From the NCBI RefSeq assembly GCF_000442275.2, contig NZ_KE557311.1:97312-139962 (forward strand): a DNA stretch of 42,651 nt. Reading direction: 5' to 3'. The notes under the pieces were generated by a model, which had not been told where the DNA came from, did not search any database, and was given only the letters and a program-made list of their open reading frames with translations. Within the stretch, counting starts at the first letter, position 1, and every line of letters begins with the position of its first letter. This DNA comes from Litoreibacter arenae DSM 19593. GTDB taxonomy: Bacteria > Pseudomonadota > Alphaproteobacteria > Rhodobacterales > Rhodobacteraceae. A program made the position numbers and the translations under genes. Below are positions 5,288-34,010 of the stretch, piece by piece.

Positions 5288-5294
5288 ACTACCC

Positions 5295-5322
5295 CTCTGC
5301 GGGCGCCAGGGTGCCCGCAGAG
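5295..5322 (+). promoter_or_regulatory. Hairpin between siaP and siaQ
   Basis: CTCTGCGGGC at 5295-5304 pairs perfectly with 5313-5322 around an 8-base loop. It sits 8 bases past the siaP stop and 27 bases before siaQ. Such stems commonly protect the upstream binding-protein message or lower transcription into the permease genes, giving more SiaP than SiaQM; that role is inference here. Confidence 0.6.
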
Positions 5323-5348
5323 ATCATCTGCAACGAGGGGATAAGCCG

Positions 5349-5828: not shown

Positions 5829-7099
5829 TCCTCGCTACTGTCGGTGTCGTCTGGTTGATCTTCGTGCTGATCGGCGTCCCCATCGGGGTCGCCATGATCT
5901 TCGTGTCGATGGGCTATTTCTATTACACAGGAATGGGCATCAGCTTCGCCATGCAGCGTATGACGGACGGGCTCAACAGCTTTCCGCTGCTGGCGGTGCC
6001 GCTGTTCATCCTCGCCGCGGGCGTGCTGAACTCTGCCGGGATCACCAATCACCTTTTCGGTTTCGCGCGATCACTGGTCGGGCACGTCACGGGCGGGCTG
6101 GGCCACGTCAATGTGCTGGCCTCGCTGTTCTTTTCCGGGATGTCCGGGTCGGCTCTGGCCGACGCCGGTGGCTTGGGCAAGATGGAAATCGAGGCAATGC
6201 GCAAGGCGGGCTATGACGACGAGTTCGCAGGTGCCGTAACCGCCGCCTCCTCGATGATCGGCCCGCTGGTGCCTCCGTCGATCACCATGGTGCTCTATGG
6301 CGTTATCGCCAACGTCTCCATCGGCAAGCTGTTCCTTGGTGGCATTATCCCGGGGTTCCTTTGCGCGGCCGCTCTGATGGTCATGGTCTGGTTCACCGCC
6401 CGCAAACGTAACTATCCCCGCGACCCGCGCCGCAGCGCGGGCGAGGTAGGCACGCTGTTCGTCAAGTCCCTGCCAGCGCTCATGACCCCCGTGGTCATCG
6501 TCGGCGGTATCTTCTCGGGCCTCTTCTCGCCCACCGAGGCCGCAGCGGTGACCGTGCTTTATGCGATCATGATCGACCTGATCTTCTACCGCGAGCTGAC
6601 CTTCCGGCGGCTCTGGGATGCAATCTACGAAACCACTGCGACGTCGGCGTCAATCGCCACGATTGTCGCGGGCGTGGGTTTGCTCAGCTTCATCATGGCG
6701 CGCGAGCAGGCACCACAGCAAATCGCGACGTTCTTCCTGTCTATCGCCGACAGCCCGATCACCTTCCTGATCGCCGTCAACGTGATGATCTTCTTTCTAG
6801 GCTGCTTCATCGAGGCGCTGGTCATTTTGCTGGTCGTCGTGCCCATTCTTGTGCCCGTCGCCATGGGTTTCGGAATTGATCCGGTGCATTTCGGCATCAT
6901 CACGGTTCTGAACCTGATGATCTCGATCCTGACACCGCCGATGGGCATGGCGCTGTTCGTCGTGGCACAGGTCGGTGGCATCCCTTACCAGAACCTTGCA
7001 AAGGCAATCCTGCCTTGGTTGATCCCGCCCTTCGTGGTGCTGTTTCTGGTCTGCGCCTTTCCGATCCTTGCAACCGGCCTCCCGAGCCTTATGGATTGA
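5825..7099 (+). CDS. siaM: TRAP transporter large permease subunit
   Basis: This 424-residue DctM-type permease has about 11-12 hydrophobic segments. Family blocks seen are 'LLAVPLFILAAGVLNSAGITNHLF', 'FFSGMSGSALADAGGLGKMEIEAM', 'IGPLVPPSITMVLYG' and, near the C terminus, 'GIDPVHFGIITVLNLMISILTPPMGMALF'. The 'SGSALADA' and 'TPPMG' elements lie in the two inverted repeats that form the ion and substrate path. It overlaps siaQ by 4 bases and nanE follows after 12 bases, so transport and catabolism are cotranscribed. Confidence 0.88.
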   Translation: MILATVGVVWLIFVLIGVPIGVAMIFVSMGYFYYTGMGISFAMQRMTDGLNSFPLLAVPLFILAAGVLNSAGITNHLFGFARSLVGHVTGGLGHVNVLASLFFSGMSGSALADAGGLGKMEIEAMRKAGYDDEFAGAVTAASSMIGPLVPPSITMVLYGVIANVSIGKLFLGGIIPGFLCAAALMVMVWFTARKRNYPRDPRRSAGEVGTLFVKSLPALMTPVVIVGGIFSGLFSPTEAAAVTVLYAIMIDLIFYRELTFRRLWDAIYETTATSASIATIVAGVGLLSFIMAREQAPQQIATFFLSIADSPITFLIAVNVMIFFLGCFIEALVILLVVVPILVPVAMGFGIDPVHFGIITVLNLMISILTPPMGMALFVVAQVGGIPYQNLAKAILPWLIPPFVVLFLVCAFPILATGLPSLMD

Positions 7100-7111
7100 T
7101 GGACTGACACC

Positions 7112-7795
7112 ATGACCCTACTCGATACCCTGCGCGGCGGTCTCGTCGTGTCCTGCCAACCGGTCGATGATGGCCCTATGGACGACCCCGCAATCGTCGC
7201 GGCCATGGCCGCCGCCGCCGTGGCGGGCGGGGCCGCCGGTCTGCGCATCGAAGGGGCCGCGAACCTTGCCGCCGTGAGGGCGCGGGTGTCCGTTCCGATC
7301 ATCGGCATCCTGAAACGCGATCTTGCCGACAGCCCCGTGCGTATCACGCCCTATCTGGCCGACGTGCAGGCGTTGGCCGACGCGGGTGCCGACATCATCG
7401 CCTATGACGCCACCGAAAGGCCACGGCCCGAAACGACGGTGGCGATCCTTGCTGCGATCCACGCGAGGGGTGCCTTGGCGATGGCCGACTGCTCGAAGCT
7501 TGCGGACGGGCAGCGCGCTTTGGCCGAAGGGGCTGCGATCCTTGGCACGACCCTGTCGGGTTACACGGATGAAACAGCAGGTCAAAACGACGACGTCGAT
7601 ACCGCTCTGATCGGCGCATTCCGCGACTTGGGTGGCTTCGTCATGGCCGAGGGTCGGGTCAACACGCCCGAGCTTGCGGGTCTTGCGATGGCTGCGGGTG
7701 CGGATGCGGTCACAGTTGGCACGGCGCTGACGCGGCTCGAACACGTCACCGGCTGGTTTCACGACGCCGTCGCACGGGCGTTCGAGGCCCGGTAA
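7112..7795 (+). CDS. nanE: N-acetylmannosamine-6-phosphate 2-epimerase
   Basis: This 227-residue TIM-barrel enzyme converts ManNAc-6-phosphate to GlcNAc-6-phosphate. Recognisable blocks are 'LRIEGAANLAAVRARVSVPIIGILKRDL' (catalytic Lys region), 'VQALADAGADIIAYDATERPRP' (Asp and Glu of the active site), 'ADCSKLADGQRA', and the phosphate-binding end 'AEGRVNTPELAGLAMAAGADAVTVGTALTRLEH'. Length is normal for NanE. The stop codon shares one base with the nanK start (TAATG), a tight coupling that matches the reaction order: NanK makes the substrate of NanE. Confidence 0.9.
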   Translation: MTLLDTLRGGLVVSCQPVDDGPMDDPAIVAAMAAAAVAGGAAGLRIEGAANLAAVRARVSVPIIGILKRDLADSPVRITPYLADVQALADAGADIIAYDATERPRPETTVAILAAIHARGALAMADCSKLADGQRALAEGAAILGTTLSGYTDETAGQNDDVDTALIGAFRDLGGFVMAEGRVNTPELAGLAMAAGADAVTVGTALTRLEHVTGWFHDAVARAFEAR

Positions 7796-8703
7796 TGCAG
7801 AAACTGCCACGCACCGCCCTGACGGGGTTTGCCGCCGATCTGGGCGGGACCAAAACCGCCGTCGCCCGCATCGAGCGCGGCGTGGTCGTCGAACGGCTAC
7901 TGGCGCCGACCGATTGCGCCGCCGATCCAGAGGCGCAAATCGCCGCCATTCGTTCCCTGCTGGGCAGGCTTGGGCACAGCAACGGCGCTCCACTTGGCGT
8001 TGCCGTCGCGGGTCGGGTTGACAGTGCGGGTGCGTGGCACGCGGTCAATCATGGCACGCTGCCCGCAATCCTTGGGTTTTCGCTGCAACACGCGCTGGTG
8101 CGCGACCTCGGCGCTGCGACCTGCCTCAACGATGCCGCCGCCGCCGCTTTTGCCGAAGGCCTGTTTGGGGCGGGAAGCCAAAGCGACAGCTTTGCCTATC
8201 TCACCGTGTCCACCGGCGTGGGCGGCGGGCTGGTGATCGGCAACCGTCTGTTGTCCAGCGCCAACGGGTTGGCTGGTCATGTCGGCTTTGTTTCCAGCCG
8301 CCATGCCAACGGCCCCTGTGGCAGCGGACGGATGGGAACGGTGGAAAGCATCGCTGGCGGGCGCGGTATCGCCGCCGCCGCAACCGCCGGCGAACACGAG
8401 GGCACCGACGCGCGTGCGGTGTTTGCCGCCGCCGCAGATGGTCAGGACTGGGCCGACAGGATCATCGCCACCTCCGCCACCGCAGTGGCGGCACTGATTG
8501 GTGACCTCACGGCCATTCTGGGCCTCGACACGGTGGCGATGGGGGGCAGCATCGGCCTTGCCCCCGGCTATATCGAACGCACCCGCACCGCACTTGAGGA
8601 GGAGCCGGAATTGTTCCGCCCGCGCCTGATCCACGCAGAACTTGGCCATGACGCGCCGTTGGTCGGTGCGCTGGCCGCACATCTGAGAAAGGAATCCCCA
8701 TGA
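7795..8703 (+). CDS. nanK: N-acetylmannosamine kinase (ROK family)
   Basis: This 302-residue ROK kinase phosphorylates ManNAc released by NanA. The ATP-binding 'AADLGGTKTAVARI' starts near residue 13, and 'YLTVSTGVGGGLVIGNRL' and 'GLAGHVGF' (catalytic-zone His) follow. The usual ROK zinc motif CxCGxxGCxE is degenerate: the sequence reads 'GPCGSGRMGTVES', keeping the first Cys while Ser and Thr replace the others. Zinc is therefore probably not bound, a trait seen in some ROK sugar kinases. The gene overlaps nagB by four bases (ATGA). The assignment to ManNAc rather than another hexose rests on its place between nanE and nagB. Confidence 0.85.
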   Translation: MQKLPRTALTGFAADLGGTKTAVARIERGVVVERLLAPTDCAADPEAQIAAIRSLLGRLGHSNGAPLGVAVAGRVDSAGAWHAVNHGTLPAILGFSLQHALVRDLGAATCLNDAAAAAFAEGLFGAGSQSDSFAYLTVSTGVGGGLVIGNRLLSSANGLAGHVGFVSSRHANGPCGSGRMGTVESIAGGRGIAAAATAGEHEGTDARAVFAAAADGQDWADRIIATSATAVAALIGDLTAILGLDTVAMGGSIGLAPGYIERTRTALEEEPELFRPRLIHAELGHDAPLVGALAAHLRKESP

Positions 8704-10787: not shown

Positions 10788-11601
10788 GGTTCTGTCGCAA
10801 ACTTCGGCATTGATTGGCAAAGGCCTCTGATCTTCTTCTGTTAGGCCGTGAGAGAGGCAAACTGAGCAAACGGGCAGAGTCCAGGCGTCATCTGGCCTTT
10901 ACGGATCATGTTCGCGACCTCAATCCCTTCGAGCGTTGCCGAAGCGGAGAAGAAGGACTTGAACCCTAGCATCGTTCGAATCCGCTTCTTGATGATACGG
11001 TGATCTTGTTCGACCATGTTGTTCGGATACTTGATCCGCACCATCTCTATCGCGATCGGGCAGCCGAGGCGCTTCAGCATGCGGTTGATCGCGGTGATGC
11101 CTGCCGTGTTGGCCCCGCTTTTGTCGATCACGATTCTGCGCGGCAGACCGTTTACCTCTAATGCGCGGGCGAAGAACTTCGTCGCAGCTGCCTTATCGCG
11201 CCGCTTAGAGAGCATAAAATCAAGGGTTTTCCCGAACCTGTCGACGGCACGTTAGAGGTGGGTCCATTCACGTTGATGTAGGTCTCATCCATCCGCCAAG
11301 AACGGTTGACCAAGGCCTTGCGCCGCCGAGCGTTGCTGGCAATCAGTGGCGAGTACTTGGCTACCCAACAGTTCAAGGTTGCATGATCTACCCGTACGTC
11401 CCTTTCGGCCAGGATCTCTTCCAAGTCCCGATACGAAACGGTGTAGCGGACATAGAAGAAGACGGCGAAGAGGATTACTTCCTTCGGAAACTGAGCGCCC
11501 TTGAACGAAATCGTAGCCTTCAATCCAACAAAGTTGATCCAAACAACTACCGTCGGCCCTTCAGGCCTGGGGCGTCAACCAGCAAAGTTTGCGACAGAAC
11601 C
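10788..11601 (-). mobile_element. Second type of IS6-family element (814 bp), degenerate
   Basis: Both ends carry the same 17 bases GGTTCTGTCGCAAACTT in inverted orientation (10788-10804 and 11585-11601). This is close to the classic IS6/IS26-type terminus, and the size is typical. Flanking octamers differ (GCAGGGAC and ATGGAAAG), so no target duplication remains. The element differs from the two copies at 48 and 31575 in both ends and protein. It separates the sialic acid operon from the YcaO locus and may mark how the two were joined. Confidence 0.88.
10841..11523 (-). pseudogene. IS6-family transposase, frameshifted with a nonsense codon
   Basis: Read leftward, the N-terminal part ('FKGAQFPKEVILFAVFFYVRYTVSYRDLEEILAERDV ... 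SWRMDETYINVNG') is a clear IS6-type start with the first catalytic Asp in 'RMDETYI'. Around 11240-11265 the frame is lost through a small deletion, and a TAA replaces a Tyr codon. The downstream frame then gives 'RRDKAAATKFFARALEVNG', 'IVIDKSGAN' (second Asp), and 'NNMVEQDHRIIKKRIRTMLGFKSF' (Glu region) before the stop at 10841. The product would be inactive. Confidence 0.85.
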
Positions 11602-12519: not shown

Positions 12520-14447
12520 GTGACGAGGCTGACGGTACGAATGTGCGGTTTTTTCGCGGTCAAGGGACCAGAGGGAAAATCCCTGCGCCCACCGGGGAAA
12601 AAGCCCGCAGCCCTTCTAGCCTATCTTGCATATAGGCGGGGCAAGAAGACCACACGAGACCGGCTCGTTGATCTCTTCTGGTCTGATAGAGGCCAGAAGC
12701 AGGGACAGGACAGTCTGCGTCAGGCGATTTATGTGATCCGCCACGCTTTGCACCACCAATCCGCAACAATCCTGATATCGGACAGGAACTACATCGCGCT
12801 TGATCGCGATCAGATCAGCTACGATCTATGGCGCGAGGATGGTAGCATTCACGAGAGTGTCCATGATGAATTGCTGGAAGATCTCGACTTCATTTCACCG
12901 GTGTTTGACGACTGGCTGCTGCATGCCCGACGCGACGTGCGAAACCGGCAAATATCCCGGGCAGAAAGACTTTTAGCAGGCGGTGACCCGGATGTGGCAC
13001 CAGAAGAAGCACTTGATATCGCGAAGATCATTCTGAAACTCGACCCGACCAACGAGCCAGCGGCGCGGATGGCGATTTCAATCCATGCCAAGCGCGATGA
13101 GATTGGACATGGGCACAGAATTATTCAAGCCTTGCAAAAGCGTCTTCAGGATGACGGGCTTGATATCTCCGAGAAAACGCAAAGCTTGTATAACAACGTT
13201 ATTTCCGCCCCCACCGACGTAAAACCGCACTCGGAGCTCCGGGCTAAGAAGCCCAAACCGGAGACAGTGACCGATCTGCCGCTGGTCGAGGTGGGGATGC
13301 CTGTCGGCGATGACAACAAGAGCTCTACCTTCGACCTGTCCGAGGAGTTTTTCGACAGGCTCGTCTCGCGTATGATTCAAATGCCTGAACTGCGGGTACG
13401 TGCGCTTGGCACATCGGACACGTTCTCACATTCTGCCTTTAGTTTGCGCCTGCTGCCGAGCGTTAAAAACGACGAAACTCGGATAGTCTTGCGATTGAGC
13501 TCCGGCGATGGAGAGGCCTTCTGGGCCTCGCACGCGCCGGTCACACTCCACCCTGCCGATGAACACATCGAAGCGCAAGTCGACAAATCCGTCATACAGA
13601 TCATATCGGCCATAGAGGAGAACATTTACCGTCACCTGAAAAGACCGCCTATGAAAACTATGTCGTAGCACAACGCCTGTTCACCGCGCCCACCGGTGAT
13701 GAATACATGGAGAAAGTTTTAGGTCATCTTGAAACCGCCATAGAACTTGACCCGGATTTTCTGCCCGCACTCGAGCGGCTCGTAAAATTCTACAACACCG
13801 GCAGCTTCATGTCCCGTCCCGGCACCGATCATCGCAAGCCAAGAGAGAAAGCCTATGAACTTGCGCAACGCCTGCTGTTCCTGAATTCGCAATACGCCAC
13901 CGCGCATGTGCGGATGGCGTCGTGCCTGCTGTGGAGACGAAACTTCCATTCTGCGGAGCGATCCGCACAGCGGGCGATGGAGCTAAAGTCATATGACCCT
14001 TACGTCCTGAACGTACTCGGCACGGCCTTGGTCTATTTGGGCGATCTGGACGCAGCAGAGAAATACTACGGCATGGCCGAGGAACGCCTGCTGCACGATA
14101 TGGATTTCGTCAGAACCGATTATGGCGAGCTGTTCTATCTCAGACACGACTTCGAACGCGCGTTATCCTGGCTTGAAACGCCCGAAGTCCGCACACCCTA
14201 TCGCACGCTCTTCTGGCGTGCCCCGACGCTTGCACAATTGGGCTATCTGGTGGAGGCCCGCCAGGATGTCGAAACCATGATCGAAGATTTGCGTAAGCGT
14301 TGGCAAGGCTCAAAACCTTTCGAAGCGGAAGCCGGAATTCAATGGATGTGCGATATGAAACCCTACCGCCGAACAGCGCATCGTGATCTTCTGGTTGATG
14401 GGTTCAATAAAGCCGGCGTTAAGATCACCGCACAGAATTTTCCGTGA
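12520..14447 (+). pseudogene. SARP/BTAD-TPR transcriptional regulator, one frameshift
   Basis: The first 382 codons encode a winged-helix DNA-binding domain (residues about 1-100, with 'PPGKKPAALLAYLAYRRGKKTTRDRLVDLFWSD' and 'QDSLRQAIYVIRHAL') and then a bacterial transcriptional activator domain (about 105-230). This is SARP architecture, best known from regulators of actinobacterial antibiotic clusters. The frame stops at 13668. Near 13640 the next frame picks up with 'EKTAYENYVVAQRLF' and continues into TPR-like helices ('GHLETAIELDPDFLPALERL', 'SAERSAQRAMELKSYDPYVLNVLGTALVYLGDLDAAEKYY') to 14447. One missing base, probably a G before GAAAAGACC, explains the break. It may be a true mutation or a sequencing error. 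It probably controlled the genes to its right. Confidence 0.75.
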
Positions 14448-14568
14448 AAGCTGCGTGAAAAAGCCAAATTTCATCGGTTCAGAGCGCAGTTTTCCGTAAG
14501 TCCAGCTTGTTCTTTGAAGCCGGTTTCACCCATCCTGATCGAGTTTTTCAAATCTGAGGATCTCGCCC

Positions 14569-15219
14569 ATGGAACATGCGCTGATATCTGACAGGGCGAT
14601 TTTCGGGCCTCGCGAATGGTCAACCGAGCATCTCCTCAGGCAGAAAAAAATTTCTAAGAAGTTCGAAGATGTCGGAGGTCGTCACGAATTCTGGCTGCAC
14701 CCGACATCCGAATTGATCCCCGGTTTCGACCCTGAAGCCGAAACGGCACACGAAAACAGAATCTATGCAAGTCTGAGAATTGACCCAAAAAATTTAGTGA
14801 TTTCCGGCGACATGTTTGCAGACATCCGGCGGCGAGACTGGACCTTTTCGTGGGCTAGCGAAGCGATATTCACTAGCAAGGATCCGCCCGGTTTCAGCAA
14901 AAACCAGTGGCGAAGGGAGGGGTGGGACCTGCTCACCATTGCCGACGTGTTTAAGCCGCAGCATCTCTACAGCGACCACGGTCCCGAAAACAAGATGGCC
15001 CTTGCGATCAGACTGAGCAGTGATGGCACGCAGATAGCAGCACTGCGAATTATCAAATACGCCGCTAACGCAGTCAAACTTGACGATTGGTCACGATCTG
15101 ATGCCGCCGACCGGCAGTACGAGTCGCTGCGTCGAATGTCTCTGTTTAGCCTCATACATATCGTTGGTGATAATGCAGATATATATGAGACAATTCTCCG
15201 TAGAGCGTTGGGCCATTGA
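14569..15219 (+). CDS. Unknown protein in the YcaO-TfuA locus
   Basis: This 216-residue product has no signal peptide or membrane segment and I do not recognise its family. It is rich in aromatic residues ('RRRDWTFSWASEAIFTSKDPPGF', 'NQWRREGWDLLTIADVF'). TGAGGA lies about 8 bases before ATG 14569. The stop TGA at 15217-15219 is in the same frame as the next gene, whose TTG start follows 9 bases later with GAGG overlapping the stop. Either the two are coupled cistrons or this is one long gene broken by a nonsense codon. It lies 121 bases after the regulator and probably belongs to the same transcript as ycaO. Confidence 0.6.
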   Translation: MEHALISDRAIFGPREWSTEHLLRQKKISKKFEDVGGRHEFWLHPTSELIPGFDPEAETAHENRIYASLRIDPKNLVISGDMFADIRRRDWTFSWASEAIFTSKDPPGFSKNQWRREGWDLLTIADVFKPQHLYSDHGPENKMALAIRLSSDGTQIAALRIIKYAANAVKLDDWSRSDAADRQYESLRRMSLFSLIHIVGDNADIYETILRRALGH

Positions 15220-15592
15220 GGTCGCCATTTGCGTCGCGCGCTTTGGCGCACCGGGGTCAAAATTATCTGGGAACATCGGGACCACGGATACTCAGAAAAG
15301 TACCTGGACGCCCCCGATGAGACAGAACTTGAGTTACTGGCACCATACCAATGGACGGAAAACCCCTATCGTTTTGCGGTGTTGATCACAACCATGGACC
15401 CCGGCACGCCGGATCTGGTTGGCTCGGCTCTTGGCCTTGATGGCAAGGCGCCCCTGCAACGGGCACGGTTCGGCGCAGTGGTCTATCTGAAGAACGTTAT
15501 CGACAGCTACCTTTTGCGTGTCCGTCTTCAGAGATAATGGTCTTCAGAGCGGCCTGATCTAAGAGAGTATCTGGCTCATCTGGATTGTTTGA

Positions 15593-16573
15593 TTATGCGG
15601 CCGTTTTATTGTGAAGCAAGCGGCGCGTTGCGATGGTCTTTTGTTTGATCCTTTCTCGTTGTTTCAGAATGGCTTGGCCGCGTCCGAAGTAGACGTCAGC
15701 AGGCGTCAGGTTCTGCAGGCTCTCGTGATAGCGCTGATGGTTGTAGTGGTCGACGAAGGCGTCGATCTGCTGCGTGAGGTCACCTGGCAGGTAGTAGTTT
15801 TCCAGCAAGATGCGGTTCTTTAAGGTCTGATGCCAACGCTCTATCTTGCCTTGGGTCTGCGGGTGATACGGCGCACCGCGCACATGGTCCATCTGACGGT
15901 CTTCCAGCCAATCAGCCAGCTCGCCGGAGATGTAGGATGAACCGTTATCACTGAGCAGGCGTGGCTTGTGCAGAACGGTTGCCTGATCGCAGCCTGAGGC
16001 TTCGAGGGCTAGGTCCAGCGTGTCGGTGACGTCGGTCGTTTTCATCGTCGTGCAGAGCTTCCAGGCGATGATGTAGCGGCTGTAATCATCCAATATCGTG
16101 CTGAGATAGAACCAACCCCAGCCGATGACCTTCAGATAGGTGAAGTCAGTTTGCCAAAGTTGGTTGGGCTTTGTCGTCTTGTCCTTGAACTCGTCGGCAG
16201 CTTTCAAAACCACATACGCTGGGCTGGTGATCAGATCGTGTTCCTTGAGAAGGCGATACACCGATGACTCTGACACAAAATACCTTTCCGTGTCCGTAAA
16301 GCGCACGGCCAGTTCTCGCGGGGATAGTTCGCTCTCGTTCAGCGCCAGATCGACGATCCGCTGGCGCACTTTGTCTGGAATGCGGTTCCAAACTCGCGAC
16401 GGCCTGGGGCTGCGGTCTTCCAATGCCTCGGGGCCACCGGACTCATACCGATCACACCAGCGATAGAACGTGGTCTTGGGGATGCCCAGCTTGTCCAGCG
16501 TCCGTTTGGCCGGCAGGTGCGACCGCTCAACGAGCCGGATAATCTCGATCTTCTCAGATGCAGGATATCTCAT
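15593..16573 (-). CDS. IS3-family transposase OrfB (DDE integrase core)
   Basis: The 326-residue protein begins with a helix-turn-helix ('AKRTLDKLGIPKTTFYRWCDRYESGGPEAL') and continues to an rve integrase core. The DDE triad is visible: Asp in 'LWQTDFTYLKV', Asp in 'LLSDNGSSYIS', and Glu in 'GKIERWHQTLKNR'. The frame is intact and of normal length. Its start overlaps the orfA stop by four bases (ATGA), so it is made either by coupling or by the frameshifting usual in this family. Since both frames are open the element may still be active. Confidence 0.93.
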   Translation of the reverse strand: MRYPASEKIEIIRLVERSHLPAKRTLDKLGIPKTTFYRWCDRYESGGPEALEDRSPRPSRVWNRIPDKVRQRIVDLALNESELSPRELAVRFTDTERYFVSESSVYRLLKEHDLITSPAYVVLKAADEFKDKTTKPNQLWQTDFTYLKVIGWGWFYLSTILDDYSRYIIAWKLCTTMKTTDVTDTLDLALEASGCDQATVLHKPRLLSDNGSSYISGELADWLEDRQMDHVRGAPYHPQTQGKIERWHQTLKNRILLENYYLPGDLTQQIDAFVDHYNHQRYHESLQNLTPADVYFGRGQAILKQRERIKQKTIATRRLLHNKTAA

Positions 16574-16941
16574 TCTTGGTCGCCCCCATCCCCGAGCATG
16601 CTTTTTTTGAGCAAGCGAACTTCAAGGGTTTGCTCGGCAACGACCTCCTTCAGCTCTTGGGCTTCACGGCGAAGGTCTTTCACTTCAGTCGTCGAAGCGG
16701 CACGGGCCGTATCACCGGCCAGTCGTTTCTTCCCAGCTTCAAGGAACTCCTTGGACCAACTGTAATACAGGCTTTGGGCGATACCTTCGCGACGGCACAG
16801 TTCAGCAATACTGTCCTCGCCTTTCAAGCCGTCCAGCACGATCCTGATCTTCTCTTCGGCAGAATACTGTTTGCGGGTAGCGCGGCGGATGTCTTTAACG
16901 ATCTTCTCGCCGTGGCTCTTTCGTCCGGATGTCTGTCTCAT
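16570..16941 (-). CDS. IS3-family OrfA (HTH, transposase subunit)
   Basis: The 123-residue product has the OrfA helix-turn-helix ('YSAEEKIRIVLDGLKGEDSIAELCRREGIAQSLYYSWSKEFLEAGKKRL') followed by a Leu-rich coiled coil ('VKDLRREAQELKEVVAEQTLEVRLLKKSML') used for dimerisation with the OrfAB fusion. ATG 16941 is preferred over GTG 16947 because AAGGAG lies 5 bases before it. It precedes and overlaps orfB on the minus strand. Confidence 0.92.
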   Translation of the reverse strand: MRQTSGRKSHGEKIVKDIRRATRKQYSAEEKIRIVLDGLKGEDSIAELCRREGIAQSLYYSWSKEFLEAGKKRLAGDTARAASTTEVKDLRREAQELKEVVAEQTLEVRLLKKSMLGDGGDQE

Positions 16942-17235
16942 CTCCACTCCTTGGTGGTTACGATGAGCCAGAAACCCTCCCTTATCAAATAGCCCTAAAC
17001 TGGCCCATAAGCGCTGAAGTCAGACACGAACTGCTTGACCAGTACCGAAACGCGATTGACGCATACCGCAAAAGGCTCGCCGGTGAGATTACCAAAAGTG
17101 TGATGGAAGCAGCAATGATACCCCATAGCACGATCAGAGACGCGGACCTCACACCCGTCTATTCTTCGGTAACGTTAACCAAAGACGAAGTTGGCGACAA
17201 TTCCGATGGTAACGCCGATGGAGGAGGCGACGGTT

Positions 17236-18426
17236 TTGGGTAAAGCCTTACAACCGGACACAACTGCCAGCGCATCAAAACGCTGGCAGCACCGGACGGT
17301 CGAGCCCGAAGAGACGATACAGCGTCTGGAGCGTATCAGGGATATCACCGGCATCACCCGCGTTGCGGATCTGACCGAACTGGACAGGATCGGTATCCCC
17401 GTAGCGCAAGCCGTTCGGCCCATGGGAAAACTCCTGACGGTCAGTCAAGGCAAGGGTCTCACGTTGGCGGCCGCCAAGGCGTCGGCTATGATGGAGGCGA
17501 CGGAGATCTGGCACGCCGAAAATCTGATGCTCGAGGGTCCGCGCGCGACATCGGCAGAAATTGAATCCGAAGCCTATCTCGACCCGCAGTTTTTGCGTAA
17601 TATTGAACACAAAGCTGATCCTGACGACGCACCTCTCGACTGGGCGCCGGCTAAGGATCTCGTGTCCGGGGCCTCGGTTATGGTGCCGCGTGACAGCGCC
17701 AACCTTGATTTCACCCGTCCCGCCGATCCGCCATGGCTGTTGCGCAATACCAATGGGCTTGCCGGGGGCAACACGATGGGCGAGGCGCGGTCTTCCGCAT
17801 TGGCCGAAGTCATCGAACGCGCGTGCCGCGCCGAGTTCGAGCGTCTTGATGAACAGGCGCGCTCGGCGTGTCGGCTGGACCCTGATCTGGTGGCAAAGGA
17901 TAGCAGTGTGCTGGGCGATCTGATTGAAATGATACACGATGCCGATCTGGTACTCGACCTGCACAATTTGACGAACGCACTTGCGGTCACGACCATCAGG
18001 GCGGTGATTTACGAAACCGACAAGACCCGCCCAAGCCACCGCCCCTCGCGGGGGCACGGGGCGCATCTTGATCCAGTGACGGCCATCTCGCGCGCCATCA
18101 CCGAGGCAGCGCAGACGCGCATCACCTACATCTCCGGCAATCGCGATGATCTGGACCCGATCCACTACGCCGCTTGGAACCTGTCGAACACGATCCGCGC
18201 TCTCGAACGGCAGATGGACTTCGCCACGACACGCGCCTCTTTGGACCTCACCGACCAAAGCACCGCTTTTCCAAGATGCGATGTCAGCGTGATGATCGAA
18301 CGGATCGAGGCGCAGAACGCTGGCCCCGTGATCTGCCTTGACCTGTCTCACCCGGAACTGGGAATACCGGTGCAAAGATACTTGCTCCCGGTCTCGCCAC
18401 ACGGCGGCCGACAAATTCACGGGTGA
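17236..18426 (+). CDS. ycaO: YcaO-domain cyclodehydratase/thioamidation enzyme
   Basis: YcaO proteins use ATP to activate a peptide-backbone amide, giving azolines or, with TfuA, thioamides. The three ATP/Mg segments are visible: 'LAAAKASAMMEATEIWHAE', 'EARSSALAEVIERACRAEFE' and 'AISRAITEAAQTRITYISGNRDD'. 'TGITRVADLTELDRIGIPVAQAVRP' and 'VSQGKGLTL' are typical of the TfuA-linked YcaO group. The C terminus 'PVQRYLLPVSPHGGRQIHG' lacks a Pro-rich PxPxP tail. TTG 17236 was chosen because GGAGGAGG ends 8 bases before it; ATG 17206 or 17218 are alternatives. It overlaps the upstream gene by 8 bases, and tfuA begins 4 bases past its stop. Confidence 0.87.
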   Translation: MGKALQPDTTASASKRWQHRTVEPEETIQRLERIRDITGITRVADLTELDRIGIPVAQAVRPMGKLLTVSQGKGLTLAAAKASAMMEATEIWHAENLMLEGPRATSAEIESEAYLDPQFLRNIEHKADPDDAPLDWAPAKDLVSGASVMVPRDSANLDFTRPADPPWLLRNTNGLAGGNTMGEARSSALAEVIERACRAEFERLDEQARSACRLDPDLVAKDSSVLGDLIEMIHDADLVLDLHNLTNALAVTTIRAVIYETDKTRPSHRPSRGHGAHLDPVTAISRAITEAAQTRITYISGNRDDLDPIHYAAWNLSNTIRALERQMDFATTRASLDLTDQSTAFPRCDVSVMIERIEAQNAGPVICLDLSHPELGIPVQRYLLPVSPHGGRQIHG

Positions 18427-18430
18427 AGAT

Positions 18431-19156
18431 ATGACTTCCCCCATCATTTTCGTAGGACCAAGCCTGACGCCACAAGACAAGGCGCGATTTCCCGATATCC
18501 GGTTTCGGGCACCCGCGAAGCAAGGCGATGTTCTGCGGGCGATGGCAGACAAGCCGACGGCAATCGGGATCATCGACGGCTATTTCGGTGACCATCTGGC
18601 CGTGCATCAAAAGGAGATACTGGAGGCGATGGCGGATGGGATACTGGTCTGGGGCGGGGCCTCAATGGGCGCCCTGCGCGCGGCTGAACTACATAGGTTC
18701 GGGATGCGTGGCGTCGGAACGATATTCGAGGCCTACGTGAGCGGCGAGATCGGCGAGGATGCCGATGTCGCAGTCACTCACGGTCCGGACGAACTCGACT
18801 TTGTGGCGACGTCGATCAGCATGGTCGATGTACAGGCGACAATCGCGGCTTTGAGGCGTCGCCGTACCATGACGGAGACGAAGCTGGCGAAGGTACTGAC
18901 CGCCGCGCGCGCGCGTCATTTTTCCGCCCGGACGTGGCGCGCGATAGCTTCTGAGGTGCACAAGACGAGGCAGGGACGGCTGCGGCTGGAGAGTATTCTA
19001 AGCTCGCCTGAAATTCAGCAGAAGCGACTGGATGCGATTGATCTGGTCCGGTGTATGGCAGAAGAGGCTGACCGTCTGGAACCAAGCTGCAAACCGCCGC
19101 CGCTGACTACATACTACCAAAGAATCCGCGAACGTGCGCTGTCGAAGAGTCCGTGA
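18431..19156 (+). CDS. tfuA: TfuA-like protein, YcaO partner
   Basis: The 241-residue product opens with 'IIFVGPSLTPQDKARF', has 'AIGIIDGYFGDHLAVHQKEIL' near residue 45, and carries the family core 'GASMGALRAAELHRFGMRGVGTIFEAYVSGEI' followed by 'DADVAVTHGP'. TfuA is named from the trifolitoxin cluster and, with YcaO, is needed for backbone thioamidation in thioamidated RiPPs and in methyl-coenzyme M reductase glycine modification. The C-terminal third is helical and basic and less conserved. ATG 18431 follows the ycaO stop by 4 bases, so the pair is cotranslated. No protease, transporter or immunity gene is adjacent, which is incomplete for a secreted RiPP cluster. Confidence 0.88.
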   Translation: MTSPIIFVGPSLTPQDKARFPDIRFRAPAKQGDVLRAMADKPTAIGIIDGYFGDHLAVHQKEILEAMADGILVWGGASMGALRAAELHRFGMRGVGTIFEAYVSGEIGEDADVAVTHGPDELDFVATSISMVDVQATIAALRRRRTMTETKLAKVLTAARARHFSARTWRAIASEVHKTRQGRLRLESILSSPEIQQKRLDAIDLVRCMAEEADRLEPSCKPPPLTTYYQRIRERALSKSP

Positions 19157-19392: not shown

Positions 19393-20568
19393 CTAGCCAA
19401 CAGCTGAAAGCCTCTCCGTCGCGCGGGCGAGTGGCATCGCACGCACCCCCCCCTGCCCCGGCACGTCGCGGTCGCTGGCATAGACCAGTATCCGCTCCGC
19501 GACCTCTAGCTCCTCGGACGCGATATGGAATCCGCGCGTGACCTTCGGCGACGTGGTTCGCTTGATCTCGACCGCCCAGAGCGTCTGATCCGGCAGCTTC
19601 AGGATCAGGTCTATTTCGGCCCCCGCTGACGAGCGATAGAAACTGGCCTCCGTCCCCCGTGGTGCCGCGGCAATCAGGTTTTCGATGCACAGGCCCTCCC
19701 ACGAGCCGCCGACGACCGGATGGCCCAGCAGCGCCTCCATCGTCTCCAGCCCAAGCAGGGCGTGGGTGAGACCTGCATCGCGGATATAGACCTTGGGCGA
19801 TTTGACCAGCCGCTTGCCAGCATTGGCGTGCCAGGGTGGCAGCCGACGCACGAGCATCAGATCGACCAGCAGGTCAAGATAGCGGGCCACGCTTTGCCCC
19901 GAAACCCCAAGCCCCGCCGCCAGTTTGGCCGCGTTGAGCAAGCCGCCTTGTTCATGGGCCAGCATTGTCCAGAACCGCCGCAAGGTCTCGGCAGGGATAC
20001 GCAGCCCGAAGGACGGAATATCGCGTTCAAGATAGGTGCGGATGAAATCCTCCCGCCATGTCAGGCTGTCGCGGTCGGAGCCCGCAAGATAGCTGTCGGG
20101 AAAGCCCCCACGCAGCCATAGCTTCGGCAAGGCCCCCTGCCCTACCTCGTCGAGGGTAAACGGCGTCAATTCGTGGTAGCTGACCCGCCCCGCCAGGGAT
20201 TCCGCGCTTTGCTGCAATAGCGTGTTGGACGCGGAGCCCAGAAGCAGAAACTGGCCCGTCCGATGCCCCGCCCGCCTGCGACGGTCGATCTGCCCACGCA
20301 ACGCGCCGAACAGGCCGGGCATCAGTTGAACCTCGTCTATCACCACCAGCTTGCCGATCTGCTCGTCAAGATACAGGTCCGGTTCTTCAAGGATCTGGCG
20401 ATCCGCAATGCGCTCCATGTCAAGATAGACCGCCTCCCGCGCCTCGGCGATATCCTGCGCCAAGGTGGTCTTGCCCACCTGACGAGGGCCGAGCAGGACA
20501 ACACCGGGCTGGGTGTCTAATGCCCGTTCAAGCTTGGGAAGGTGGTTTCTACGTATCATACCTTGCAT
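19393..20568 (-). CDS. AAA ATPase with DUF4143 domain
   Basis: This 391-residue protein has an N-terminal P-loop ('VVLLGPRQVGKTTLAQDIAEA', residues 23-43), a Walker B ('KLVVIDEVQLMPGLF') and a sensor stretch ('QFLLLGSASNTLLQQ'). The C-terminal DUF4143 half resembles a PD-(D/E)XK nuclease fold ('AEIDLILKLPDQTLWAVEIKRTTSP'). Such proteins are common, poorly understood accessory ATPases with possible roles in stress or mobile-element maintenance. ATG 20568 is given; ATG 20559 is equally possible. Upstream, ATACCTTG (20558-20565) and CAAGGTAT (20593-20600) form an inverted repeat around the palindrome ATGCCATGGCAT, a possible autoregulatory site. Confidence 0.82.
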   Translation of the reverse strand: MQGMIRRNHLPKLERALDTQPGVVLLGPRQVGKTTLAQDIAEAREAVYLDMERIADRQILEEPDLYLDEQIGKLVVIDEVQLMPGLFGALRGQIDRRRRAGHRTGQFLLLGSASNTLLQQSAESLAGRVSYHELTPFTLDEVGQGALPKLWLRGGFPDSYLAGSDRDSLTWREDFIRTYLERDIPSFGLRIPAETLRRFWTMLAHEQGGLLNAAKLAAGLGVSGQSVARYLDLLVDLMLVRRLPPWHANAGKRLVKSPKVYIRDAGLTHALLGLETMEALLGHPVVGGSWEGLCIENLIAAAPRGTEASFYRSSAGAEIDLILKLPDQTLWAVEIKRTTSPKVTRGFHIASEELEVAERILVYASDRDVPGQGGVRAMPLARATERLSAVG

Positions 20569-20623: not shown

Positions 20624-21898
20624 TCATGCTGCCAGCCCTTTCAGTCGCCCAAAGAAGCTCCGGTCCAGATGCAGTTCCCCGATTTCGAACTTACGGGCCA
20701 TGCCCAGCAAATACCCACCCGCTGACGCCACTTCTCCGGCTTGTACCTTCTCGAACACAAGCGCCAAAGCCGCCGCTGCAACCGGCCTGCCCATCCTCAC
20801 CTGTGCCTGCGCCCAGCTTTGGTCAGAGATGCCGATCATCGGGCGCAAAGCCTCAGCGCAGCGCATGAAATCAGGCCACCCCCCGATCCCTTTCCCCAGA
20901 TCATGACCCCAAGAGGTGAATTCCGGACAAGCTTGCAGGATCATCGGTAAATCAAGATCTCGCGTTGCCGTGGCTGTTCCGGGTGGCGCGGTTGCCTCAT
21001 CCTCTTCTTCAGCGCTGTTACAGGTTACAAGATAAAGTTGATTTGTAGTTTGTATGTGGGGGTCAGATTTGGCCTCTTTGGGGGTCAGATTTGGTGTTTC
21101 GTGGCTCTCACACAGCTGTGTCGCTTCTTCGGTGTCGGGCGTCAAAAGGGCACCTTCGATCCGCGCCAACAATCTCCGGAACCGCTCCAGCACAGCCTCA
21201 AGTAGATCAGAGGGCATACGGGATCGCGGTAGCTTCTCCAGAAGCGCATCATAGGCCTGTTGAATCCGCGTGAGCCCCCGGCTCTGCGGATCGTCTTGCC
21301 ACGCTGCCTCAAGCCGTGCGCGAATGCTGCGGCGGGCAATCGTGATCTGTCGCTTCAGGCGCTGGCACAGGCTCCGCTCTGCCGACAACTCGGTCGCCAA
21401 TTCCTCGAACTCCTCCGCCCGCGCGCTCAGCGGTGACAGATCAAACCCATAGGCCTCGACGATTACGCCAGCCGCGTCCCTGCGCCCCCAACGCTTGCCA
21501 TTGGGGCTGTCGTTGAAGGTAATGATCCCCACTTCGACCAAGCGCCTGCCGTGGCGCTTCAGGGTCGAGAGCGAAAAGCCCGTCTGCTCCATCAGGAAAG
21601 CGTTGGAGGCCCAGACGATAGGCCGCCTGCCCTCCTCCCAATCCTGAGGTTGGGTGAACGCGGCCAAGGTGTCGAGCAGCAGCAGGTCCGCCGCTTTCAG
21701 ACCGATATGAGCGCCGACCCGCTTCACTGCGACCACGGCGCGCGTCTTCGGGATGGCTCGCGACGCGCCTTTCTTTGCCAGCTCGGCGGATGCCAACAGC
21801 GCCTGAGATGCATTTCGCCATCCATCAGGCCGCAAATAACCGGTCCCGTCGCTGCCTGCGCGGGTGTCCCCGATCGGGGTTTCTCTGAATTTCCTCAT
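20624..21898 (-). CDS. repC: Plasmid replication initiator RepC
   Basis: The 424-residue product matches alphaproteobacterial RepC: a basic N-terminal winged-helix part ('VGAHIGLKAADLLLLDTLAAFTQPQDWEEGRRPIVWASNAFLMEQTGFSLSTLKRHGRRLVEVGII'), a variable middle, and a C-terminal domain ending near 'GYLLGMARKFEIGELHLDRSFFGRLKG'. RepC binds the origin within its own gene in characterised repABC plasmids. ATG 21898 was chosen; the frame is open further up only to a TTG inside the antisense RNA region. It is the last gene of the repABC operon, 197 bases after repB. Expression should be limited by the ctRNA encoded in that spacer. Confidence 0.87.
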   Translation of the reverse strand: MRKFRETPIGDTRAGSDGTGYLRPDGWRNASQALLASAELAKKGASRAIPKTRAVVAVKRVGAHIGLKAADLLLLDTLAAFTQPQDWEEGRRPIVWASNAFLMEQTGFSLSTLKRHGRRLVEVGIITFNDSPNGKRWGRRDAAGVIVEAYGFDLSPLSARAEEFEELATELSAERSLCQRLKRQITIARRSIRARLEAAWQDDPQSRGLTRIQQAYDALLEKLPRSRMPSDLLEAVLERFRRLLARIEGALLTPDTEEATQLCESHETPNLTPKEAKSDPHIQTTNQLYLVTCNSAEEEDEATAPPGTATATRDLDLPMILQACPEFTSWGHDLGKGIGGWPDFMRCAEALRPMIGISDQSWAQAQVRMGRPVAAAALALVFEKVQAGEVASAGGYLLGMARKFEIGELHLDRSFFGRLKGLAA

Positions 21899-21981
21899 AA
21901 TAATGCTTAACGCCGTAAAAACCCGTTCGCCCAAGGGCGTTTTTTGTTGTGTGGCGATTCGCTGGCTGCTAGGATTGAAGT

Positions 21982-22041
21982 GCGAAAACAATCGGCGCCT
22001 TGGCGCTACAGCCCTTGAAACTCCGGTTTCGAGGGTTTTTT
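21982..22041 (+). ncRNA. Putative antisense ctRNA (incompatibility RNA) in the repB-repC spacer
   Basis: On the strand opposite repABC, TTGTGT (21947-21952) and TAGGAT (21970-21975) are spaced 17 bases apart. A 60-base transcript would end in a strong intrinsic terminator: a 10-bp stem (22012-22021 with 22026-22035, one G-U pair, loop TCCG) followed by six Ts. Position, orientation and size match the ctRNA of repABC plasmids, which represses repC through antisense pairing. A second small hairpin with a T tract is at 21928-21945. The promoter assignment is by eye. Confidence 0.62.
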
Positions 22042-22082
22042 CGTTCTGCGTCGTCCTCCTGCTCTGCTCGTTGCCAATGTGC

Positions 22083-22104
22083 CAGTTAACAGCTGTTAAC
22101 TGGC
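22083..22104. promoter_or_regulatory. parS: parS site 1 (22-bp palindrome at the repB stop)
   Basis: GTTAACAGCTGTTAAC at 22085-22100 fits the repABC centromere consensus GTTnnnnGCnnnnAAC, and the symmetry extends to 22 bases (22083-22104). It contains the repB stop codon (TAA at 22096-22098). Confidence 0.85.
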
Positions 22105-23067
22105 GCTATCTTCCAGTCGTTCTTGAAAGGACCGGTAAGATTCCTGAATAAGCTGGTCGATGTTCTGATCCAGCCAGTCTGCGAAGGCCTTGTTCTCCCC
22201 TGCCCGCTTCACGGACAGCGCGACGGAGGATTTGCCTGATTTCACCGTGACACCGGGCACCGGCGTCCGCTCGGACAGCGTCCGCTCTTTCGGGCCGCGG
22301 GCGTTGAATGCCGCAAGCGCCGCCTCAAGTCGCGTATCGGAGTCTGCCTCCGCCCCCAGCTTCGTCAAAGCCGACAGTACCTGTTCTTCGGACGTGCCGC
22401 CCGTCTCGAAGGCGGAAGCCAGCGCCATCCATTTCGGGCGTCCCGCCTTGGGGGCCGCGCCGATAAACTCGCCCACCGCATCAGGGATCAGCCGCGTGAT
22501 CCGTTCCAGTTGCGACAGGGTGTTCTTGCTGATCGCCAGCGCCTGCATGACCTGTTCGCGGGTGTGGCCTTGCTCCAGAATGGCCTTGGCGAAGCGGGCG
22601 CGCTCGTAATAGCTCAGGTCGGCGCGACCGGCGTTCTCCAGACCTTTGGCCATCAGCGCCTCGGTGTCGTCCAGGGTACGGATCAGCGCCTTGACTGGAA
22701 TGCCAAGCTGACGGCAGGCTAGGATACGCCGCCGCCCATAGACCACATCGAAATGCCCGTCGCGGTTGCGGGACGGGCGCAAAAGCACCGGAACCTGCTG
22801 ACCGGAGGCCGCGATGCTTTGCGCGATGTCCTGCAATTCGCCGGACTGCGCGTCCGGGTTAACAGCTGTTAACTCCAGACGGTCCTGCGGCCCCCAGCTC
22901 TGGATCAGGGCCGTGTCGATCTCCTGAATCCCGCCGATGCCCGCGCGCACAGAGCCGACGGTCCCCTTGGGCAAGCTGCGATGCGCCCGGTCATAGATCG
23001 GGGCCTTGCCCTCGGTTGCGGCGGATATTGCGGCCATGATGCCGGATTTGTTCTTGTCGAGTGCCAT
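22096..23067 (-). CDS. repB: Plasmid partition protein RepB (ParB family)
   Basis: This 323-residue DNA-binding partition protein has the ParB/Srx-like nuclease-fold segment ('ELQDIAQSIAASGQQVPVLLRPSRNRDGHFDVVYGRRRILACRQLGIPVKALI') and a central helix-turn-helix ('SYYERARFAKAILEQGHTREQVMQALAISKNTLSQLERI') that recognises parS. The C-terminal part probably dimerises. ATG 23067 lies within a few bases of the repA stop (23070), so the two are coupled. A parS palindrome lies inside the gene and a second overlaps its stop codon. Confidence 0.9.
   Translation of the reverse strand: MALDKNKSGIMAAISAATEGKAPIYDRAHRSLPKGTVGSVRAGIGGIQEIDTALIQSWGPQDRLELTAVNPDAQSGELQDIAQSIAASGQQVPVLLRPSRNRDGHFDVVYGRRRILACRQLGIPVKALIRTLDDTEALMAKGLENAGRADLSYYERARFAKAILEQGHTREQVMQALAISKNTLSQLERITRLIPDAVGEFIGAAPKAGRPKWMALASAFETGGTSEEQVLSALTKLGAEADSDTRLEAALAAFNARGPKERTLSERTPVPGVTVKSGKSSVALSVKRAGENKAFADWLDQNIDQLIQESYRSFQERLEDSAS
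22858..22873. promoter_or_regulatory. parS: parS site 2 (inside repB)
   Basis: This is an exact copy of GTTAACAGCTGTTAAC within the repB coding sequence, encoding part of 'LELTAVNPDA'. Exact repetition of a 16-bp palindrome inside a gene supports a binding site rather than chance. Confidence 0.85.
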
Positions 23068-23069
23068 GT

Positions 23070-24251
23070 CTAGCGCCCCCATGCTTTTTGAATCAGATGC
23101 GCAACATCCGAGCCGACAGCGTCCATGCTGTGCCGCGCGCGATCATAGGTGCTGCGGGTCATTTCGGCCCGCGTCACCTCATAGATCGACATCTTCAGCA
23201 TCGAGGCATCTGCAACCGCCGTGCTTCGAACGGCCGTGGAGGGAATAACCCGATCCTGAAACAGCGCGCGCATCAGAGAAACGATCTGTTGGCTCGGTAT
23301 GTCGCTGGGATCATCTCTTGTGATTAAAAAGGAAAAGAAATCGTGATCCAACCGTACGCCGGTATTCTCGATCACGCCCAGATAGGCCGAGGTCATCTCG
23401 ACGAATTGTTGTGTCGACGCGAGGTCCAGCATGCTGGGGGTCATCGGCACCAGAACCGAGGTCGCCGCGAAAAGCCCGGTCAGCGTTAGAAAGCCGAGGG
23501 CAGGGGGGCTGTCGATGATGACCACGTCATAGTCATCCTCCACAGAGTCCAGCGCGCGGGACAGCCGCTCGAAAAACGCCTCGCCACGGCCGGCATTGAC
23601 GGCGGTTTCGGTCTCGAACTCGCTCAGGATCAGGCGGGCAGGGGCCAGATCAAGGCCGGGGAAATAGGTGTCGACGATCACATCGCGCAAGGGCAGGGGG
23701 TCGTCGTAGCGCAAGGCGTCGTAAATGGTGGCGCCGTCGAACTCCAACTCGGTCTGCAATCCGCAAAAGCCGGTGAGGCTTCCCTGCGGGTCAAGATCGA
23801 CCGCCAGCACGCGGTAGCCTGCCAGCGCAAGGTAGTGGCACAGATGGATCGTCGCCGTGGACTTGGCGGAGCCGCCCTTGAAGTTCATCAGCTGGATGAC
23901 TTGCAACTTGTCGCCCTCGCGGCGGCCGGGAACATATTTGCCGACCGTGCGAGAGCCCGCTTCGAGCAGGTGCCGCATTTTCCACAGCTCTGCACCGGAA
24001 TAGAAACGCCGCCCGTTGGAGATGACTTCCGGCTCCGGCAGGGTGCCGTCGGAATGCCCCTTGCGCAGGAACTGGCCGGAGACGCCCAGCAGCTCGGCAG
24101 ACTCTGTTGCACTGAAAAGCCGCAATTTCTTGCGTTGATCCGGCGCATAGACCTGCTCTAGATGTGTGGTGAGTGCGGTCTTCAACCGCGCCGCCATTTC
24201 CTGCGTCACGTCGGTCTGGGAGGCGGCCGAGATGGGTCCCGTCTGTAGCAT
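23070..24251 (-). CDS. repA: Plasmid partition ATPase RepA (ParA family)
   Basis: The 393-residue product has an N-terminal MerR-like helix-turn-helix ('ATESAELLGVSGQFLRKGHSDGTLP', about residues 48-72) and a ParA ATPase domain with a deviant Walker A ('MNFKGGSAKSTATIHLCHYLA'), 'VLAVDLDPQGSLTGF' and 'YDVVIIDSPPALGFLTLTGLFAA'. In repABC operons RepA drives segregation and, with RepB, represses the operon promoter. ATG 24251 is preferred; a TTG lies 7 codons upstream. It is the first gene of the leftward operon, and a parS site lies about 145 bases upstream, near the likely operon promoter. Confidence 0.9.
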   Translation of the reverse strand: MLQTGPISAASQTDVTQEMAARLKTALTTHLEQVYAPDQRKKLRLFSATESAELLGVSGQFLRKGHSDGTLPEPEVISNGRRFYSGAELWKMRHLLEAGSRTVGKYVPGRREGDKLQVIQLMNFKGGSAKSTATIHLCHYLALAGYRVLAVDLDPQGSLTGFCGLQTELEFDGATIYDALRYDDPLPLRDVIVDTYFPGLDLAPARLILSEFETETAVNAGRGEAFFERLSRALDSVEDDYDVVIIDSPPALGFLTLTGLFAATSVLVPMTPSMLDLASTQQFVEMTSAYLGVIENTGVRLDHDFFSFLITRDDPSDIPSQQIVSLMRALFQDRVIPSTAVRSTAVADASMLKMSIYEVTRAEMTRSTYDRARHSMDAVGSDVAHLIQKAWGR

Positions 24252-24394
24252 GGTTGTTGTTTTCCCGCTCAATATTGCTTATTTGCGCAACTTCAACCCG
24301 TTAGGCCGCGATTCACCCTGCCAAGTCAAGGAAAATATCCACAGGTAGTGTCTAACAAACCCGTAGACACAAATCCATCCACCAGAGCATGCGT

Positions 24395-34006: not shown

Positions 34007-34010
34007 CAGG

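What the first reader, a model, noticed from the sequence alone, without database searches (positions are those of the whole stretch)
12520..19156. Candidate undescribed RiPP-type locus: SARP regulator, two unknown genes, YcaO and TfuA
YcaO and TfuA are adjacent and coupled, and both keep the core motifs of the backbone-modifying pair. Upstream genes overlap or nearly overlap them and match no family I know. Control by a SARP/BTAD-TPR protein is unusual in an alphaproteobacterium and resembles antibiotic regulation. There is no recognisable protease, transporter or dehydrogenase, so the pathway may be minimal or may modify a protein rather than a secreted peptide.
Basis: partly seen in the sequence, partly recalled or inferred. 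Interest (0 to 1): 0.85.

Follow-up and report, generated by a model that had tools for sequence, protein, structure and literature searches.

The report
Broken thioamide-peptide gene cluster remnant
A plasmid in an alphaproteobacterium carries a worn-out gene cluster of a kind thought to make small sulfur-modified peptides; relatives keep an intact version with a built-in protease-like gene and a peptide precursor, so this copy is mainly useful as a pointer to that family.

Summary
The YcaO-TfuA pair is real (Pfam 2.6e-56 and 1.4e-38) and lies beside RepABC plasmid genes. The "two unknown genes" are not two genes. Relatives in an uncultured Shimia MAG (L057) and Yoonia sediminilitoris (L058) show pieces of one gene for a ~770-aa HExxH (zinc-metallopeptidase-like) protein, followed there by a precursor-like gene, YcaO, TfuA and a one-piece SARP-TPR regulator. 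In the window the regulator is frame-shifted; the peptidase gene has an internal TGA and is cut by a multicopy IS3 element before its HExxH motif, with about 1.7 kb missing; YcaO is frame-shifted near its end, losing a PGL motif kept by 16 of 16 relatives aligned. Only TfuA looks whole. Most likely a decayed thioamidated-RiPP cluster. The wider class is coherent: of 109 related loci, 105 have TfuA, 74 a cyclase- or SARP-TPR regulator, 36 a thermolysin/fungalysin-like peptidase, 34 a precursor family, 29 of these ending in 5-6-residue tandem repeats such as SGAKV. That layout was not seen in the papers searched.

The parts
12520..13668 (+). N-terminal piece of a SARP (Trans_reg_C/BTAD-like) regulator
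   Evidence: Pfam Trans_reg_C 2.9e-05, 24.5 bits under cut-off 26.2; 31% identity to residues 12-386 of the 649-aa SARP-TPR ORF of L058
13707..14447 (+). C-terminal TPR piece of the same regulator, in another frame (frameshift between about 13630 and 13668)
   Evidence: TPR_1 7.8e-09; 48% identity to residues 407-644 of the same L058 ORF; frames shown
14569..15219 (+). N-terminal piece of the metallopeptidase-like gene, closed by a TGA
   Evidence: blastp 4e-07 to the 778-aa ORF of L058; TGA inside one continuous match to L057
15220..15518 (+). continuation of the same gene in the same frame, up to about 34 residues before where relatives carry HExxH
   Evidence: 35% identity to L057 residues 267-320; HExxH positions in L057/L058
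15519..17026 (.). IS3-family insertion element, 1508 bp, multicopy in this genome; no clear 3-4 bp target duplication
   Evidence: plasmid hits annotated IS3 family transposase, best one spanning window 15518-17026; 1 full copy, 1 partial 74% match, 8 terminal matches of 38-40 bp; all 8 lie at the first or last bases of contigs; flanks read
15593..16573 (-). IS3 transposase orfB (integrase core)
   Evidence: Pfam rve 1.2e-26
16570..16947 (-). IS3 transposase orfA (HTH)
   Evidence: Pfam HTH_Tnp_1 6.4e-12
17027..17243 (+). remnant beyond the IS, G/D/N-rich C-terminus; by position the likely 3' end of the precursor gene (inference)
   Evidence: position immediately before YcaO as the precursor-like ORF in L057/L058; sequence similarity not significant
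17191..18426 (+). YcaO, frame-shifted near 18380-18396
   Evidence: PF02624 2.6e-56; C-terminal PGL absent here in frame, present in 16 of 16 others
18431..19156 (+). TfuA, apparently whole
   Evidence: PF07812 1.4e-38; deviates at 2 of 40 otherwise invariant columns, the 12 others at 0-3
20624..24272 (-). RepABC plasmid replication/partition genes (context)
   Evidence: RP-C 3.2e-59, RepB 1.9e-09, ParA-type AAA_31 1.7e-34

Best explanation
This is a decayed, plasmid-borne copy of a thioamidated-RiPP biosynthetic cluster. In the intact form (L057, L058) a SARP-TPR regulator would control genes for a zinc-metallopeptidase-like protein, a precursor with a long leader and a short C-terminal core (GDAADF repeats in L058), YcaO and TfuA. 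TfuA would help supply sulfide, YcaO would activate a backbone amide with ATP and turn it into a thioamide, and the peptidase would release the modified core. Those working steps are inferred from known YcaO-TfuA chemistry and gene layout; none was measured. In the window this has broken down (read directly from sequence): the regulator is frame-shifted, the peptidase gene has a stop and an IS3 insertion, and YcaO has lost its normal C-terminus. That a deletion beside the IS removed the HExxH domain and most of the precursor is inferred from the relatives. The pathway as a whole is therefore most likely off in this strain.
For: Family hits for YcaO and TfuA. Single YcaO in the genome. Syntenic relatives with one-ORF regulator, HExxH protein, precursor-like ORF, YcaO, TfuA. 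Both regulator pieces map to one ORF. One peptidase match with a TGA inside and no other match in the genome. IS3 element multicopy. About 1.7 kb missing: L057 has 1.87 kb from the corresponding point to YcaO, the window only 0.18 kb outside the IS. YcaO C-terminal motif out of frame. Tree: window+L057+L058 grouped at SH-aLRT 94 (just under the 95 mark), window end branch 1.71 against 0.82 and 0.91. Class context: repeat-tailed precursors and thermolysin/fungalysin-like peptidases in 34 and 36 of 109 loci.
Against: YcaO keeps 52 of 57 columns constant in 16 relatives and TfuA looks whole, so the pair could still be active; the lost C-terminus has no role proven here. Inside its own clade TfuA is not more deviant than others (2 of 40; the earlier 9 of 53 was mostly clade-level difference). 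Homology of the peptidase pieces is weak (21-40% identity over short stretches; best E 4e-07 and 0.004). The 17027-17243 remnant shows no significant similarity to either precursor or peptidase. The window's tree branch is long and its place is flagged unsure. The metallopeptidase reading of L057/L058 rests on the motif alone; the model failed (pLDDT 32.5). The regulator lies upstream on the same strand in the window but downstream on the other strand in L057/L058, so the order is not fully shared.
Confidence: 0.8

Rival explanations
1. The locus is an intact, minimal, undescribed RiPP pathway, with the overlapping upstream ORF as precursor.
For: YcaO keeps 52 of 57 constant columns; an in-frame stretch with a G/D-rich tail survives directly upstream of YcaO; short precursor-like ORFs upstream of YcaO occur in 19 of 109 loci, Azospirillum type.
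Against: Frameshift in regulator, TGA and IS3 in the peptidase gene, frame-shifted YcaO end.
Confidence: 0.07
2. YcaO-TfuA is kept for another job: thioamidation of a cellular protein, as in archaeal McrA.
For: NCBIfam best hits are the McrA-thioamidation models TIGR03266 (179 bits) and NF033432 (178 bits).
Against: Both hits fall well below their cut-offs (365 and 235 bits); the pair sits beside plasmid genes with a frame-shifted YcaO; no YcaO above 37% identity in 294 other family genomes at E <= 1e-40; uL16-type YcaOs are reported without TfuA nearby (PMC13063428, passages).
Confidence: 0.07
3. The point lesions are assembly errors and only the IS3 insertion is real.
For: The genome is a 14-contig draft with this IS at contig ends.
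Against: Two frameshifts and one stop fall in three different genes of one locus, and YcaO sits on a long branch, in an assembly rated 99.96% complete; even so the IS and the missing stretch alone remove the peptidase domain.
Confidence: 0.06

Closest known systems
Thiovarsolin cluster (VarA/VarY/VarT), Streptomyces varsoviensis
   Same: YcaO+TfuA with a precursor made of leader plus imperfect core repeats (PMC6511847, passages seen)
   Different: No dedicated protease; has heme-oxygenase-like, ATP-grasp and amidinotransferase genes. The class here has a metallopeptidase, perfect 5-6-residue repeats and TPR-type regulators; the window copy is broken
TfuA-related gene cluster families of Proteobacteria (Malit et al. 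2021)
   Same: Adjacent YcaO-TfuA, widespread in Proteobacteria, Ruegeria named among hosts (PMC8120280; abstract, sections 12, 13, 15 and passages seen)
   Different: In the parts seen no metallopeptidase plus SGAKV-type tandem-core layout is described; SARP and TPR occur 0 times in the main text
Archaeal McrA glycine thioamidation (TIGR03266/NF033432)
   Same: Best NCBIfam models for both proteins
   Different: Scores far below cut-off; RiPP-like plasmid setting
SARP/AfsR-type regulators of actinobacterial antibiotic clusters
   Same: Trans_reg_C, BTAD and TPR in that order in relatives L057/L058; BTAD over its cut-off, the other two under theirs
   Different: Alphaproteobacterial; window copy frame-shifted; AfsR model NF053617 only 13.9 bits against 1430 (N-terminal piece)

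Membership tests
Thioamidated-RiPP (YcaO-TfuA) biosynthetic cluster | Adjacent ycaO and tfuA genes | tested here: met
Thioamidated-RiPP (YcaO-TfuA) biosynthetic cluster | YcaO with conserved ATP/Mg site residues | tested here: met
   E97, E100, E201, E204, R205, E300, Q303 are constant in the 17-sequence alignment, window included; which of them bind ATP is recalled, not tested
Thioamidated-RiPP (YcaO-TfuA) biosynthetic cluster | YcaO intact to its conserved C-terminal PGL region | tested here: not met
   Out of frame in window, present in 16 of 16 others
Thioamidated-RiPP (YcaO-TfuA) biosynthetic cluster | Precursor peptide gene in the cluster | tested here: inconclusive
   Only a 71-residue remnant by position; no significant similarity
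Thioamidated-RiPP (YcaO-TfuA) biosynthetic cluster | Thioamide in the product | not testable with these tools
   needs mass spectrometry
SARP-TPR regulator | N-terminal winged helix, BTAD, C-terminal TPR in one protein | tested here: not met
   Winged-helix-like and TPR parts present but split by a frameshift, and no BTAD hit in the window piece; one ORF with a BTAD hit in L057/L058
Zinc metallopeptidase | HExxH motif in the window gene | tested here: not met
   Break point lies before HExxH of L057/L058 and no second match in the genome
M4/M36 (thermolysin/fungalysin) fold of the peptidase in the related class (pepA, e.g. L008) | gluzincin fold with HExxH and a downstream glutamate | tested here: met

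The most novel reading that the evidence does not exclude
The window is a fossil member of an unreported class of tandem-core thioamidated RiPPs centred on Alphaproteobacteria: a long leader followed by 5-6-residue repeats (SGARV, SGAKV, YSGGKA, GDAADF), YcaO-TfuA thioamidation, a dedicated thermolysin/fungalysin-like (or, in the window's own clade, another HExxH) peptidase that frees many copies of a tiny thioamide peptide, and control by SARP-TPR or cyclase-TPR proteins.
Probability: 0.45. Interest if true: 0.62.

Novelty: new variant of a known kind. Interest (0 to 1): 0.4.

Why it matters
The window copy itself is a pseudo-cluster. It led to two syntenic relatives that look intact and to a coherent wider class (33 of 105 non-duplicate loci with both a thermolysin/fungalysin-like peptidase and the repeat-type precursor family) in named isolates such as Ruegeria strains. 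If the class makes thioamidated penta- or hexapeptides, it would add a source of protease-resistant mini-peptides and a direct test of how YcaO-TfuA chooses sites in a tandem core.

Tried and rejected
Searches for the first unknown gene found nothing in 294 other family genomes, 20 other congeners, 72,556 plasmid records or viral contigs. A single-sequence YcaO scan of the genome collection found nothing; the alignment-based scan gave the relatives. An early claim that TfuA and YcaO are strongly degenerate (9 of 53 and 9 of 61 columns) was cut back after adding L057/L058: 2 of 40 and 5 of 57. The structure of the L058 peptidase-like protein failed (pLDDT 32.5), and it has no Pfam hit and only a chance-level PDB sequence hit (E 0.89). 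The PDB sequence hits of the pepA profile (best 3.2e-08) rest, but for one at E 0.79, on one 23-column stretch shared with 'Bagel' and cell-surface proteins and were set aside. Remnant 17028-17240 against precursors and peptidase C-termini: 485, 160, 491 and 195 of 500 shuffles reach the score, so no better than chance. Its best blast hit among the 109 loci (E 0.003, composition correction off, an ORF at the far end of L113) was judged chance. No background control was made for how often cyclase-TPR genes lie in any 17-kb stretch; the repeat control (1 of 1381 ORFs) includes many spurious ORFs. ORFs in the survey are mechanical, so some starts are too far upstream. Four of the 109 (L062, L064, L109, L079) I judged duplicates or near-duplicates and left out of the non-duplicate counts; the tree holds 103 rows: the window plus 109 less six loci dropped by name (those four, L103, L086) and one dropped for length. 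Literature searches that did not turn up this layout: (open PubMed Central subset only; listings and abstract starts seen).

Full report
What is there. The window lies at C8:97312-139962 of a 3.68-Mb, 14-contig draft genome, with RepC, RepB and ParA-type genes inside it, so on a RepABC-type replicon. YcaO (17191-18426) and TfuA (18431-19156) are clear (PF02624 2.6e-56, 191.8 bits; PF07812 1.4e-38, 131.8 bits). The genome has no other YcaO match.

Relatives. In 294 other genomes of the family only 5 have a YcaO at E <= 1e-40, all 33-37% identical; in 384 other genomes drawn from the class the best is 39%. The top two, L057 (uncultured Shimia MAG, 41%) and L058 (Yoonia sediminilitoris, 37%), were the only ones of the 109 loci whose neighbours match the window's upstream gene and the only two with that HExxH protein family. 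They join the window's YcaO in the tree at SH-aLRT 94, just under the 95 mark, with the window on a branch about twice as long (1.71 against 0.82 and 0.91; the tool flags the place of such a long row as unsure).

Layout in the relatives. L057 reads: HExxH protein (5126-7408, 760 aa, HELGHLLNLPH), precursor-like ORF (7422-7934, 170 aa), YcaO (to 9182), TfuA (from 9179, 4-base overlap), and a SARP-TPR regulator of 657 aa on the other strand. L058 is alike: 778 aa with HELTHLLNLPH, a 196-aa precursor-like ORF ending in GDAADF repeats, YcaO, TfuA, and a 649-aa regulator on the other strand. Pfam finds BTAD over its cut-off and Trans_reg_C and TPR under theirs in both regulators, and nothing in the HExxH proteins. 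The two precursor-like ORFs are 30% identical. In the window the regulator lies upstream on the same strand, so the order differs there.

Lesions in the window. (1) Regulator: 12520-13668 and 13707-14447 are in different frames and map to consecutive parts of one ORF in each relative. (2) Peptidase-like gene: 14569-15219 closes with TGA, the frame stays open to 15518, and a search of the own genome with the L057 protein gives one match across both with one TGA inside (E 2.4e-4). (3) IS3 at 15519-17026: ends agree with plasmid copies. Besides this full copy and one partial 74% match, the genome has eight 38-40 bp matches to its ends, and all eight are the first or last bases of contigs (five start at base 1; three end at the last base), as a multicopy element would break an assembly. 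The flanks show no clear target duplication. In L057 1.87 kb separate the corresponding point from YcaO; the window has 0.18 kb outside the IS, so about 1.7 kb, with the HExxH region about 34 residues on, is gone (inference). (4) YcaO: 16 of 16 other sequences end in ...PGL...; the window reads LLPVSPHGG in frame, while another frame reads APGL and closes in an ATGA overlap with TfuA, the same junction as L057. It also differs at G58, R75 and D206, which are constant in the other 16. TfuA is not more deviant than its relatives (2 of 40 columns, others 0-3).

The remnant 17027-17243 overlaps the YcaO start and ends GDNSDGNADGGGDGFG. By position it should be the 3' end of the precursor gene; sequence comparison is not significant, so this stays an inference at about 60%.

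Mechanism. Shown elsewhere, not here: deletion of varA, varY or varT abolishes thiovarsolins, and thioamidated tripeptides come from APR repeats of VarA (PMC6511847, passages); TfuA is described as a hydrolase that with a thiocarboxylated carrier delivers sulfide equivalents (PMC13063428, passages). Inferred here: the same chemistry on the tandem core, release by the peptidase, and control by the TPR regulator. Shown here: gene order, motifs, lesions.

Comparison with print. Malit et al. 2021 (PMC8120280) report 2,326 unique clusters, 70% in Proteobacteria, with Ruegeria among the hosts of Nif11-like precursors (abstract, sections 12, 13, 15 and passages). Thiovarsolin is the closest described layout (repeating core) but lacks a protease gene. 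Searches did not show the metallopeptidase/SGAKV layout; subscription journals, most preprints and supplements were not seen, so absence from print is not established.

Verdict. A decayed member of a variant of the thioamide-RiPP kind. Interest for the window alone is modest; the intact class deserves the attention.

Noticed in passing
L008, L010, L011, L012, L060, L076, L084, L093, L094, L102, L106, L115, L118, L125, L127, L129, L130: YcaO-TfuA loci with a thermolysin/fungalysin-like peptidase and precursors ending in SGARV or SGAKV tandem repeats; most also hold a cyclase-TPR gene in the stretch fetched.
   Followed up: partly
L015, L016, L039, L059, L061, L063 and 13 other loci: Short precursor-like ORF (63-91 aa in 18 of 19, 251 aa in one; motif IRGADGRLY or close to it, end ITPG or similar) upstream of YcaO-TfuA; 17 of 19 hold a cyclase-TPR gene, and a Crp/Fnr gene follows TfuA in the two annotated ones that I read.
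   Followed up: partly
L040:9300-10253 (-): 317-aa ORF upstream of YcaO built of AGRWA(V/I)(T/S)P(D/E) repeats, perhaps a many-copy tandem core.
   Followed up: no
window 10841-11523 (-): Frame-broken IS6/IS240-type transposase (DDE_Tnp_IS240 2.7e-19 in one piece) upstream of the RiPP locus, beyond sugar-catabolism-like (nag-like, recognised by eye) genes.
   Followed up: no
window 883-1076: Partial, 74% identical match to the end of the same IS3 element.
   Followed up: no
window 19393-20568 (-): AAA_14/DUF4143 ATPase directly downstream of the locus on the other strand.
   Followed up: no
L057:1922-5041 (+): 1039-aa protein with trypsin-like and GDSL-lipase-like domains just upstream of the Shimia cluster; may belong to it.
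   Followed up: no
window about 34000-39050: Stretch similar to plasmid-borne histidine utilisation (hut) clusters of other Rhodobacterales.
   Followed up: no
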